From positions 62,001-126,000 of the forward strand of contig NC_019702.1 in assembly GCF_000317085.1 (NCBI RefSeq): a DNA stretch of 64,000 nucleotides, written 5' to 3'. The DNA is from Synechococcus sp. PCC 7502. GTDB taxonomy: Bacteria; Cyanobacteriota; Cyanobacteriia; Pseudanabaenales; Pseudanabaenaceae. Shown piece after piece: positions 1 to 3,616 of this stretch (its first letter is position 1; the number at the start of each line of letters is the position of its first letter). The notes below the pieces were generated by a model. The model made no database searches. It saw only the letters and a list, made by a program, of their open reading frames with translations, and had not been told where the DNA came from. The position numbers were made by a program, and so were the translations under genes.

Positions 1-1161
1 CAAAGCCGTCCATCGAGAGATGAGTTTCAATTTATTCATCGACAGCTAGGAGAAACTGGAACATGGGAAGCTTTGTGGAGAGCTTATTTGATTCTTAGAT
101 TATTTCAGTCTAGACAGTTAAATTTGGCTAGAGGAAATAACATTGAGAAGTTTAATAATTTGAGAAATACTTTATCGAATCTACCTATTGGAAGGTGGCA
201 ATCCGAGCATACTCAAGCATTAATTCAACTGACAAACGACGATAATTTTAGATTAATTGTGAAAGATGCTCTAGACTTATTTGGTGAGCAAAAAATCCAG
301 ATAAATCAGACTATTTGGATCTTGTATGATGATTTAGATGAAGATTTTTCTGAGAAAAATGGGGTTAGAGAGCAAGCATTAACTGGTCTATTTCAACTTA
401 TTCAAGCTTGTGACGCTCGCCGATTAACTTCAGTTAGATTTAAGATTTTCATACGTGAAGATATTTGGAATCGCTTAAACTTTGACAATAAAAGTCATTT
501 TAATGGACGTGATCTTCTTCTAAAGTGGACGAGAGTTGATTTCTTACGCCTTGCCTTACGACAAGCTATGCAATCAAGAGCCTTCAAAAATTTAGTGGAT
601 ATGACCTCACCTATTGAAAATATTGATACTGCCACTGAAGAAAATTTAAATAAAGCACTGGATTTACTGTGGGGTGTGCGTAGAAGAACTGGTACTAAGG
701 CTAAGTATGTTCATAGATGGGTTTATGAACGCCTATCAGATTTAAGCGGCGCTACTTTCCCTCGAAGTTTAAGTGTATTACTTCAGGGAGCAAAAGAACA
801 TGAACTCAGTTACAAGGGACAAGCATCATTAAAATCACCATCTGATCGGTTAATTCGTGGTACATCTTTAGAGAGAGGTCTAGAAAAAGCGTCTGAAGAA
901 CGTTGTGATGCAATTAGACAAGAGTATCCAGACTTAGAAAGATTTTTTGAATCTTTAGAAGGTGTTCCAGCATTGCCTACCAAAGAAGAACTTTATGTAG
1001 TATGGCAACAAAGTTATCTAGATTCATATCCTGACTTTGATAACTTTTCTGGTTTTTTGAGCGATATAGGATTAGCTAAATGGCGTGAAAAAGAGATTCG
1101 ATATGGCTTTGCCGATATCTATGTATATGGATTCAAAATGATTCGGAAGGGTGGAAGATAA
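1..1161 (+). CDS. P-loop ATPase-like protein, C-terminal part (5' end outside window)
   Basis: The reading frame is open from base 1, so this is the last 386 codons of a longer gene; the internal TTG at 73 is not a credible start. The segment ILYDDLDEDF around residue 110 has a hydrophobic strand followed by acidic residues, as in the Walker B strand of P-loop NTPases, and the later RFKIFIRED segment resembles the next core strand. The Walker A motif would lie upstream of the window. The overall look recalls the Sll1717-type P-loop ATPases of cyanobacteria, which have no settled function; this is a resemblance only. The gene is AT-rich, has no HIP1 octamer and adjoins a decayed toxin-antitoxin locus and an IS, suggesting accessory DNA. 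Confidence 0.6.
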   Translation, partial: QSRPSRDEFQFIHRQLGETGTWEALWRAYLILRLFQSRQLNLARGNNIEKFNNLRNTLSNLPIGRWQSEHTQALIQLTNDDNFRLIVKDALDLFGEQKIQINQTIWILYDDLDEDFSEKNGVREQALTGLFQLIQACDARRLTSVRFKIFIREDIWNRLNFDNKSHFNGRDLLLKWTRVDFLRLALRQAMQSRAFKNLVDMTSPIENIDTATEENLNKALDLLWGVRRRTGTKAKYVHRWVYERLSDLSGATFPRSLSVLLQGAKEHELSYKGQASLKSPSDRLIRGTSLERGLEKASEERCDAIRQEYPDLERFFESLEGVPALPTKEELYVVWQQSYLDSYPDFDNFSGFLSDIGLAKWREKEIRYGFADIYVYGFKMIRKGGR

Positions 1162-1197
1162 ATGTAGGGAGGCTTGCGCCCCCTATAAAAGCTAGTT

Positions 1198-1235
1198 CTA
1201 ACTCCCACCGATAAGTGCAACATCGCGGGAGTTAG
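1198..1235. repeat. Inverted repeat (9-bp stem, 20-nt loop)
   Basis: CTAACTCCC at 1198-1206 pairs exactly with GGGAGTTAG at 1227-1235. It lies between the end of the ATPase-like gene and the end of the decayed brnA, so it could have been a shared transcription end, but no T-run follows on either strand. Confidence 0.35.
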
Positions 1236-1287
1236 CTTCAAAGGCTGCATTATCACCATTCCAACCATTCGCTAACAGTAAAAATGC

Positions 1288-1521
1288 TCAAAATTTAACA
1301 GCAACTTTCTCTATAGGTTCCACAATCCAAAACTTGATTATAGACTGGCGATCTATATCTAAACGGGCTGACTCTCGATCAATTGCCGAAATCATCCACT
1401 AAGGCAAATCAACAGAAATAGGCTGAGTTTCTAAAGCAGGACGTTTTAATGTGGATAGATCGAATAAATCTAAGATATCTTCACCATCATCAAACTTTTT
1501 ATCCAACTCTTCAGCTTTCAT
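1288..1521 (-). pseudogene. brnA: brnA-type (RHH) antitoxin, inactivated by one in-frame stop
   Basis: Reading from ATG at 1521, the protein begins MKAEELDKKFDDGEDI and continues through ISVDLP, then TAG at 1399-1401, then WMISAIDRESARLDIDRQS and ends at TGA 1288-1290: 77 codons with a single nonsense codon at position 41. This is the layout of the short ribbon-helix-helix antitoxins that accompany BrnT toxins (acidic N-terminal toxin-wrapping part, then the RHH DNA-binding fold beginning at VDLP-xWM). The stop falls exactly at the residue between the RHH strand and the WM pair. The start overlaps the end of brnT by 11 bases, the usual toxin-first arrangement. A 40-residue N-terminal peptide could still be made but would lack the DNA-binding fold. 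Confidence 0.8.
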
Positions 1522-1678
1522 ATAGCTTCACCTCATTTTCGCGCGATCACCTTACAGAAATAATCCTAACCACAGAACCTCGATAAGTCACAATTGCTGA
1601 CTAGTTTTTGCCGTCAATCTTGCCAATGATCATAAAACGAGGCTTGTCTGTTGATAAAGTTTAGATTTCAACCCTATA
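1511..1678 (-). pseudogene. brnT: brnT toxin, 3' fragment left of the IS
   Basis: Translating the minus strand from the IS edge gives YRVEI, stop, TLSTDKPRFMIIGKIDGKN, stop, SAIVTYRGSVVRIISVR, stop, SRENEVKLYES and a natural TGA at 1511-1513. The string RFxxIGKI-SAIxTYR-xxRIISVRxSR-ExExY is the C-terminal half of the BrnT RNase-toxin fold. The premature stops are at 1661-1663 (TAA), 1601-1603 (TAG, where family members have Trp) and 1547-1549 (TGA, where they have Arg). The 5' part of the same gene lies at 2577-2669, beyond the IS, and joins this part in frame. Confidence 0.85.
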
Positions 1679-1697
1679 GAGTGTATTTGAGATCTAG
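1679..1697 (+). repeat. IS terminal inverted repeat (transposase 3' end side)
   Basis: Reads GAGTGTATTTGAGATCTAG. It matches the opposite end in 16 of 19 positions and contains the stop codon of the second transposase frame (1694-1696). Confidence 0.85.
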
Positions 1698-2233
1698 TTT
1701 TCTGCAAGCCTGATGAGCAATAGCCTGAGGAAACAGAGATTCAATTTTGTTGAAGCATTAAATAGAGTTTTCTCAAAGTTCTTAACTAAAATCTTACATC
1801 TTTCAACCCAAGCATTCGACCTTTCAATTACCCATCTTGCCTTGATAGGGACAAACCCAGACTTTCCAACTGATGCTTTTTCTGCTTTAGTGGGCTTGTC
1901 CGATAGTTCAAACTTGATTTTGCTCATAATTTGAGGGTAAATCTTCTCTAGCTCCTGCCTAATGCGGTCTGGATGATACCCGTTATCCAGCAAAATTGTA
2001 ATCTTAGGGACATTCATAGGCTTGGACTTAAAGTAATCAATATTTTCTGTGAACATCTCAATTAGTCCTTGGTCATCACTTACATTTGCTTTTGTACAAT
2101 GAGTGAAAAATGGAAATCCTAAACTATCAACTGCTAGGTGTCTTTTGATCCCGTTTGTGGCTTTGTAAAAGCAAAAAACTTTTGACTCCACTCCTGCATT
2201 GCAAGTATTCTTAACTGCCTGTGAGTCAATCAT
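1694..2233 (-). CDS. IS5-type transposase, C-terminal frame (orfB, DDE catalytic domain)
   Basis: This frame carries the catalytic domain: MIDSQAVKN supplies the first Asp, ILLDNGYH the second, and RWVIERSNAW the Glu of the DDE triad in the IS5 spacing. The listed ATG is internal to the natural product: the frame is open upstream and, after a -1 shift in orfA, reads NRKWTSLIMIDSQ directly into this ORF. The last codons lie in the terminal inverted repeat. As a free-standing 179-residue protein it would still contain the whole DDE triad but lack the N-terminal DNA-binding part. Confidence 0.85.
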   Translation of the reverse strand: MIDSQAVKNTCNAGVESKVFCFYKATNGIKRHLAVDSLGFPFFTHCTKANVSDDQGLIEMFTENIDYFKSKPMNVPKITILLDNGYHPDRIRQELEKIYPQIMSKIKFELSDKPTKAEKASVGKSGFVPIKARWVIERSNAWVERCKILVKNFEKTLFNASTKLNLCFLRLLLIRLAEN

Positions 2234-2235
2234 AA

Positions 2236-2532
2236 TCAGGCTTGTCCATTTTCTGTTTTTTTAGAATGTTCTCTCACCATGCCATGCAGTTGTTTCATTA
2301 TTCTTGTGATTACCCCTGCATCTCGCCATTGCTTGTAGTGCCAAAATACCGTTGAGTATGGTGGGAAGTCTTTGGGTAAATCTATCCAATTACAACCATT
2401 CTTTAGTTGGTATAGGATGGCATCGAGTATTTGTCTCTTTGTCCAATTAGATGGTCTGGTCTGCTTTTTCTGTGGTAACAATGGTTCTATGATTTCCCAT
2501 GCTTTGTCTGTTAAGTCGCTTGTGTAAGCCAT
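2236..2532 (-). CDS. IS5-type transposase, N-terminal frame (orfA)
   Basis: This encodes the 98-residue N-terminal part (DUF4096-like) with LTDKAWEIIEPLLP, LDAILYQLKNGCNWIDLP and STVFWHYKQWRDAG, a pattern shared by many IS5 transposases and involved in end binding. Near its 3' end the message contains seven A residues (template T-run at 2256-2262) in the frame of AAA AAA A, a classic slippery site. A -1 slip there fuses it to the DDE frame; without slippage translation stops at GQA-TGA. The start ATG sits 40 bp inside the element end. Confidence 0.85.
   Translation of the reverse strand: MAYTSDLTDKAWEIIEPLLPQKKQTRPSNWTKRQILDAILYQLKNGCNWIDLPKDFPPYSTVFWHYKQWRDAGVITRIMKQLHGMVREHSKKTENGQA
2256..2262 (-). 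promoter_or_regulatory. Slippery heptamer for -1 transposase frameshift
   Basis: Seven A residues on the coding strand lie just before the orfA stop. The zero frame reads KKTENGQA and stop; the -1 frame reads KKNRKWTSLIMIDSQ, which continues into the DDE domain. This is the expected device for making the fused transposase. Confidence 0.65.
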
Positions 2533-2553
2533 TTTGGGTTTATACTACCATTT

Positions 2554-2572
2554 CTAGATGTCAAATAGGCTC
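2554..2572 (-). repeat. IS terminal inverted repeat (transposase 5' end side)
   Basis: On the minus strand it reads GAGCCTATTTGACATCTAG, matching the other end except at three positions. TATA follows directly at 2573-2576. Confidence 0.85.
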
Positions 2573-2576
2573 TATA

Positions 2577-2669
2577 ACAATCATTCCATGGCATTTTTGC
2601 CTTTTCAAAGTCGATTCCATGCTTCGATTGACTAATCTGACTTTTTACTAGATCGTACTAAAATCGCAC
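2577..2669 (-). pseudogene. brnT: brnT toxin, 5' fragment right of the IS
   Basis: From GTG at 2669 the minus strand reads VRF-stop-YDLVKSQISQSKHGIDFEKA and then KMPWNDC up to the IS target site. The YDxxKSxxNxxKHGIDFxxA-LWND pattern is the N-terminal signature of BrnT toxins. Codon 4 is TAG at 2658-2660, where relatives have Glu (GAG). Joined across the IS with one TATA copy, the text continues NDCYRVEI, with the spacing expected in the family. The rebuilt gene has 86 codons, the normal BrnT size. Together with the other fragment the toxin has four nonsense codons plus the insertion. Confidence 0.85.
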
Positions 2670-2707
2670 AACTTTATTCAGGCTACAATAAATAATCTTC
2701 AAAATTA

Positions 2708-3127
2708 ATGCGATCCCTTACAAAAACAGAAGAGTATATGGCTTTAGATTTAAACTCTATTCAATTTCTAGAAGCGATCGCCCAATTTAACAAACAAGAA
2801 TTCTATACCTGCCACGATCTCTTAGAAGCAATATGGATGGATGCTTATTATCCAGAAAAAACTTTTTATCAAGGATTATTGCAAATTGCAGTGGGGCTTT
2901 ATCACCTTGGAAATTCCAATTACAAGGGCAGCATGATTTTACTGGGTGAAGGCATAGGTCGGCTTAGGGACTTTCAGCCAGAATACAAAGGGGTAAATGT
3001 CAGTCAACTAATTCAAGACAGTGCTGAACTGCTGAGCAAAATCCAAAAATCAGGTAAAGGGGAACTAGAAAGCAAAATTCTCAAATTGCCTGAAATTGTT
3101 TATATTTCTAGTGATGAAGAGCCATAG
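2708..3127 (+). CDS. DUF309 domain protein
   Basis: The protein has the DUF309 helical signature, with HDLLEAIWMDAY at about residues 33-44 (His, Glu and Trp conserved) and a second helix QGLLQIAVGLYHLGNSNYKG, the pattern known from DUF309 proteins across bacteria. The biochemical function of the family is not established. Two starts are possible: ATG 2708 or ATG 2738 (MALDLNSIQF); the latter has AGAAGAG just upstream and gives the more typical N-terminus. It lies just past the brnT remnant and reads away from it. Confidence 0.75.
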   Translation: MRSLTKTEEYMALDLNSIQFLEAIAQFNKQEFYTCHDLLEAIWMDAYYPEKTFYQGLLQIAVGLYHLGNSNYKGSMILLGEGIGRLRDFQPEYKGVNVSQLIQDSAELLSKIQKSGKGELESKILKLPEIVYISSDEEP

Positions 3128-3163
3128 ATTAGAATTTTTCCAGCTTTGGGGTCGTGGGGTAGT

Positions 3164-3616
3164 TTAGCAATGCAGGCAGGGCACCGAAATTGCCACTATA
3201 ACAATATACAAAATTGTTTTTGATAATTTTCGGGTGTGCAAAAATTGGGTATATCTCTCCCTAATAGCCAAATATTGTTCTTTTTGAGTAGAAGATAAAG
3301 GACAGTTTCGCAGAACCCGCACCAAGTCTTTATAAATGTATCCCGATCTAAAAAAATAGGGTCTGATTTCCAAAAAACTCAAGGCATAGGTGATCGCTTC
3401 TTGATCACCCGAGCGCAATCTGCTTCTAACCCCATTAATCCCACCTAAAAAAGCTAGATCATTATATTGACAATGAAACTCCTTACAGGCTTGCTCCCAA
3501 ATTTTCCATTCCTTTTCACTCCTATCTCGATATTTCCAAGTCTCATGGATGCGATCATGAAGTGAGACAATTTTTGCTGTATTGCTTATAATTTGGTGTT
3601 CGTAGGGTAAAACCAT
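3164..3616 (-). CDS. Conserved protein of unknown function
   Basis: A 150-residue protein with many charged residues in the first half (HETWKYRDRSEKEWKIWEQA), a central part containing YNDLAFLGG and LRSGDQEAITYALSFLEIRPYFFRSGY, and a hydrophobic tail of about 20 residues (ILYIVIVAISVPCLHC). The FLE-RPYFFRSGY segment followed by a basic helix looks like a bacterial family I have seen only as uncharacterised, and in which the protein ends soon after that helix. The hydrophobic tail here may be a frame extension or a membrane anchor. It stands alone, reading toward DUF309. Confidence 0.6.
   Translation of the reverse strand: MVLPYEHQIISNTAKIVSLHDRIHETWKYRDRSEKEWKIWEQACKEFHCQYNDLAFLGGINGVRSRLRSGDQEAITYALSFLEIRPYFFRSGYIYKDLVRVLRNCPLSSTQKEQYLAIRERYTQFLHTRKLSKTILYIVIVAISVPCLHC

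What the first reader, a model, noticed from the sequence alone, without database searches (positions are those of the whole stretch)
1288..2669. A brnTA toxin-antitoxin locus killed by an IS and five nonsense codons, with the insertion event exactly reconstructable
Seen directly: brnT is split at NDC/YRVEI by an 894-bp IS, and deleting the IS plus one TATA rejoins an 86-codon frame with family-like spacing. Toxin stops lie at 2658-2660, 1661-1663, 1601-1603 and 1547-1549; the antitoxin has one at 1399-1401. Most stops can come from single transitions (CAA to TAA, TGG to TAG, CGA to TGA). A toxin needs to die before or with its antitoxin; the IS gives a natural first hit. The locus gives a datable example of toxin-antitoxin decay.
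Basis: partly seen in the sequence, partly recalled or inferred. Interest (0 to 1): 0.68.

Follow-up and report, generated by a model that had tools for sequence, protein, structure and literature searches.

The report
Dead toxin-antitoxin pair with late transposon
A small bacterial toxin-antitoxin gene pair in a cyanobacterium, probably acquired from a related genus, has rotted into a pseudogene carrying five stop codons and a jumping gene; the jumping gene most likely landed late rather than dealing the first blow, so this is a clear but ordinary case of gene decay.

Summary
On the minus strand a BrnT-type toxin gene (2669-2577 and 1678-1511) is split by an 894-bp IS5-family element (1679-2572) with a 4-bp TATA duplication. 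Four in-frame stops lie in the toxin and one in the antitoxin (1288-1521). A relative from another genus (G031) carries the intact pair with no IS; it aligns without gaps and has exactly four bases at the duplicated site, so the junction prediction holds. All 19 related IS copies inspected in the same genome are flanked by TATA on both sides. Corrections: the antitoxin matches Pfam CopG_antitoxin (PF12441), not BrnA. 'IS as first hit' is not supported: the IS transposase, including its -1 frameshift, carries no lesion, and under equal rates the chance that it predates all five stops is about 0.007. The dead locus is 85% identical to G031, whereas leuA is 72% (G031) and 81% (same-genus G001), so the pair was probably acquired horizontally. 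In six relatives the toxin is already deleted to a few tens of bases or nothing, while the antitoxin is intact in two and broken in four, which fits 'toxin dies first'. It is an ordinary decayed TA module, not datable in absolute terms.

The parts
2573..2669 (-). 5' piece of the brnT toxin pseudogene (first 31 codons from a GTG, plus right TATA copy); stop TAG at 2658-2660
   Evidence: PF04365 positions 1-26; 81% DNA identity to G031 brnT; coordinates
1511..1678 (-). 3' piece of the brnT pseudogene (includes left TATA copy); stops at 1661-1663, 1601-1603, 1547-1549; overlaps brnA start by 11 nt
   Evidence: PF04365 at 34.8 bits, E 1.3e-7 in genome search; ungapped homology to G031
1288..1521 (-). 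antitoxin pseudogene (77 codons, CopG/ribbon-helix-helix type), stop TAG at 1399-1401 leaving a 40-aa ORF
   Evidence: PF12441 hit; 80% aa identity to intact G031 antitoxin over 71 codons; alignment of eight orthologues
1679..2572 (-). 894-bp IS5-family insertion sequence, single copy of its type; imperfect ends GAGTGTATTTGAGATCTAG / GAGCCTATTTGACATCTAG
   Evidence: PF13340 and PF01609 transposase domains; genome search; ends
2236..2532 (-). IS transposase ORF1 (98 aa), intact; A7 slippery run near its end
1694..2233 (-). IS transposase ORF2 (179 aa from its first ATG; the frame stays open back to the slippery run), -1 frame relative to ORF1, intact
1675..1678 (.). left copy of TATA target duplication
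2573..2576 (.). right copy of TATA target duplication
1198..1268 (-). relic of the last codons of gltB (glutamate synthase), downstream of the antitoxin
   Evidence: 76% to the gltB 3' end of G031 with 9 bases missing; no intact gltB of this type in the genome
1171..1197 (-). decayed remains of the gltB terminator hairpin
   Evidence: comparison with relatives; BLAST extension to G020

Best explanation
This is a non-functional relic of a type II toxin-antitoxin operon (BrnT ribonuclease-type toxin followed by an overlapping CopG/ribbon-helix-helix antitoxin). The lineage probably acquired it from a Pseudanabaena-like relative, together with a scrap of the gltB 3' end that the intact operon adjoins there. 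Selection lapsed and nonsense mutations accumulated in both genes. An IS5-family element then inserted into the already decaying toxin at a TATA site and duplicated it; it most likely arrived after most of the stops. Shown: the gene identities, the lesions, the empty site in a relative, and an undamaged IS. Inferred: the horizontal transfer, the late IS, and toxin loss before antitoxin loss.
For: Toxin and antitoxin profile hits. Intact ungapped pair in G031, 29 bp after gltB, with no IS and one 4-base site. TATA flanks at all 19 sibling IS copies inspected. IS ORFs without stops and with a conserved -1 frameshift; P = 0.007 that five of five stops fall in brnTA if the IS was present throughout. 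The transposase differs at 8 of 122 conserved columns, relatives 0-8. brnTA is 85% identical to G031, but leuA is 72% to the same genome and 81% to same-genus G001. The antitoxin shows relaxed constraint: 9 of 12 unique changes at codon positions 1-2 against 5 of 21 in intact relatives (Fisher P 0.009); omega 0.09-0.16 against 0.03-0.06.
Against: The left IS end differs from the right at 3 of 19 positions, and the transposase deviations are at the top of the relatives' range, so the IS is not pristine. Dead and live substitution rates are estimated from few sites. High DNA identity of a short locus alone does not prove transfer. No sister strain is available.
Confidence: 0.77

Rival explanations
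1. The IS insertion was the first hit: it silenced the toxin and, by polarity, the antitoxin, and all five stops accumulated afterwards.
For: The insertion alone would abolish the toxin safely; the IS ends and a few conserved transposase residues show some divergence.
Against: No stop in about 288 transposase codons against five in about 162 codons of brnTA; P about 0.007 for equal exposure, and about 0.05 even for three of the five stops.
Confidence: 0.15
2. The pair is ancestral to this genus and was inherited vertically beside gltB; gltB was later deleted, leaving its tail.
For: Relatives carry the same module beside gltB, and a gltB tail remains here.
Against: Gene order is permuted (toxin-antitoxin-gltB tail here, gltB-toxin-antitoxin in G031). 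The dead DNA is more like another genus than leuA is like its own congener. Same-genus G001 has no such locus next to DUF309 and no gltB of this type.
Confidence: 0.2
3. The remaining 40-aa N-terminal antitoxin ORF is still made and kept as a mini-antitoxin against related toxins.
For: The ORF 1399-1521 has an intact start; orphan antitoxins are common elsewhere (PMC7192599, PMC10790755).
Against: Amino-acid changes unique to this copy are as frequent before the stop (4) as after it (4), and the ribbon-helix-helix half is lost.
Confidence: 0.04

Closest known systems
BrnT (PF04365) toxin with CopG_antitoxin (PF12441) type II TA modules
   Same: Toxin profile hit, gene order toxin then antitoxin, 11-nt overlap as in the intact G031 pair
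   Different: Interrupted by an IS and five stops; antitoxin below the family cut-off; not functional
brnTA of Brucella (BrnT/BrnA)
   Same: Toxin family
   Different: The antitoxin belongs to a different Pfam family (CopG_antitoxin, not BrnA PF14384)
IS5-family elements with two-ORF frameshifted transposase in cyanobacteria
   Same: PF13340 and PF01609 domains, A-run frameshift, TATA target duplication as in the genome's other copies
   Different: Single copy here; nearest relatives about 71-74% identical in DNA
Orphan antitoxins and degrading TA pairs (Klebsiella, E. coli surveys PMC7192599, PMC10790755)
   Same: Toxin lost while antitoxin persists in relatives
   Different: In the window both genes are dead

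Membership tests
BrnT toxin (PF04365) | match to the family profile | tested here: met
   3' piece 34.8 bits against 34.5 cut-off; 5' piece 18.5 bits to positions 1-26
BrnT toxin (PF04365) | complete open reading frame | tested here: not met
   four stops and an 894-bp insertion
BrnT toxin (PF04365) | ribonuclease activity | not testable with these tools
   needs an assay
BrnA antitoxin (PF14384) | match to the family profile | tested here: not met
   no hit at E up to 1 for this antitoxin or its intact orthologues
CopG_antitoxin (PF12441) | match to the family profile | tested here: inconclusive
   21.2 bits (E 0.00049), intact orthologue 24.9, cut-off 28
IS5-family insertion sequence | transposase domains with two ORFs in -1 frame | tested here: met
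   PF13340 E 1.6e-27, PF01609 E 8.5e-11; frame layout shared with relatives
IS5-family insertion sequence | inverted ends and short target duplication | tested here: met
   16 of 19 end positions match; TATA on both sides, as in 19 sibling copies

The most novel reading that the evidence does not exclude
The 3' end of gltB, at its terminator hairpin, is a recurrent turnover site for toxin-antitoxin modules in Pseudanabaenaceae. Modules arrive and decay there repeatedly with the toxin lost first, and the brnTA plus gltB-tail segment moved between genera as a circularly permuted unit.
Probability: 0.2. Interest if true: 0.42.

Novelty: new member of a known kind. Interest (0 to 1): 0.18.

Why it matters
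It gives a clean, checkable example of how a toxin-antitoxin pair dies. Intact, toxin-less and fully dead versions of the same module exist in related cyanobacteria, and an insertion sequence can be ordered relative to point mutations. It does not change what is known about such systems, since toxin loss with orphan antitoxins is already documented.

Tried and rejected
Plasmid collection: only a 95-bp, 75% match in Catenovulum. Near-identical IS copies: none in the own genome (about 40 related copies at 71-74%), none in 58 relatives, and none among the species genomes of genome contigs (best 78-80% aa), so absolute dating failed. A same-genus empty site at DUF309 was examined: in G001 that gene adjoins an aminoacyl-tRNA synthetase gene, not brnTA, which is compatible with insertion in the G000 lineage but is not a clean empty site because the flanks differ. 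The mutation type of each stop was not worked out, since that would amount to listing repairs. Literature searches for this strain's insertion sequences gave nothing useful.

Full report
What is there. The window lies in a 3.58-Mb cyanobacterial genome. All coordinates of the finding were reproduced: five stops, two TATA copies and an 894-bp element. The toxin halves were searched apart with X at each stop and hit PF04365 at complementary profile positions. The six-frame genome search found the 3' half independently. The antitoxin hits PF12441 CopG_antitoxin weakly and not PF14384 BrnA, as does its intact orthologue, so 'brnA' is a loose name.

IS-free relative. A DNA search of 58 relatives gave 85% identity over 349 bp in G031 and weaker matches in others. 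In G031 an intact 95-codon toxin and 74-codon antitoxin overlap by 11 nt and start about 29 bp after gltB. Window 1306-1654 aligns to L004 1501-1849 and window 2575-2669 to L004 1872-1966, both without gaps. Extended, both TATA copies fall on the same four bases, L004 1870-1873 (TGTA). The predicted junction is thus matched without joining anything. The element's relatives in the same genome, about 40 copies at 71-74% identity, were inspected at 19 places, and every one is flanked by TATA on both sides.

Order of events. The IS transposase has both ORFs open, the family -1 frameshift at an A run, and the expected transposase domains. It deviates at 8 of 122 conserved columns, while relatives range from 0 to 8. 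Counting stop-creating single changes, brnTA holds 37% of the opportunity, so all five stops falling there has probability about 0.007 if the IS had been present throughout. This assumes equal rates. The three mismatches between the IS ends temper it. The antitoxin shows relaxed constraint on this branch (9 of 12 unique changes at codon positions 1-2, against 5 of 21 in intact relatives, Fisher P 0.009). Omega against relatives is still only 0.09-0.16, so most divergence accumulated while the gene was functional and death was comparatively recent.

Origin. The dead locus is 85% identical to G031. By comparison leuA, close by in the window, is 72% identical to G031 and 81% to same-genus G001. 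A decaying locus should diverge faster, so acquisition from the Pseudanabaena side is the simplest reading. A relic of the gltB 3' end (1198-1268) and its terminator lies after the antitoxin, whereas in G031 gltB lies before the toxin. This genome and G001 lack that gltB, and this genome keeps only a divergent glutamate synthase paralogue. The permuted order is unexplained; tandem duplication with deletion, or a circular intermediate, would give it.

Relatives as a decay series. At or near gltB the toxin is reduced to its last 43, 42, 31 or 25 bp in G023, G032, G034 and G015, and to nothing beyond the overlap region in G025 and G017. For G032 the contig is too short to show gltB itself. The antitoxin is intact in G032 and G034, and frameshifted, interrupted or truncated in G023, G015, G025 and G017. 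No relative has an intact toxin with a dead antitoxin.

Verdict. It is an ordinary decayed TA module with a tidy comparative context.

Noticed in passing
window 1-1161 and upstream (L155:157-588 and 599-3262): Immediately upstream lies a two-gene cassette matching PADLOC candidate defence system PDC-M28 (143-aa A; an 887-aa protein matching both B, with a KGGVGR ATPase motif, and C, apparently fused).
   Followed up: partly
window 1171-1268: Relic of gltB 3' end and terminator downstream of the antitoxin, in permuted order relative to G031; the genome lacks the gltB it came from.
   Followed up: partly
L004, L006, L007, L008, L009 (region after gltB): In several relatives different toxin-antitoxin-like genes (VapBC/PIN-like, HicB-like, BrnT/CopG; names by eye except BrnT/CopG) sit just after gltB, suggesting a turnover hot spot.
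   Followed up: partly
L001 1501-1993: The genome has a second, apparently intact BrnT module whose antitoxin is of the BrnA type (PF14384, 25.0 bits, just under cut-off).
   Followed up: no
G000, about 40 places: A related IS5-family element is present in about 40 copies of 71-74% identity to this one; the 19 inspected sit at TATA sites, a strong target preference.
   Followed up: partly
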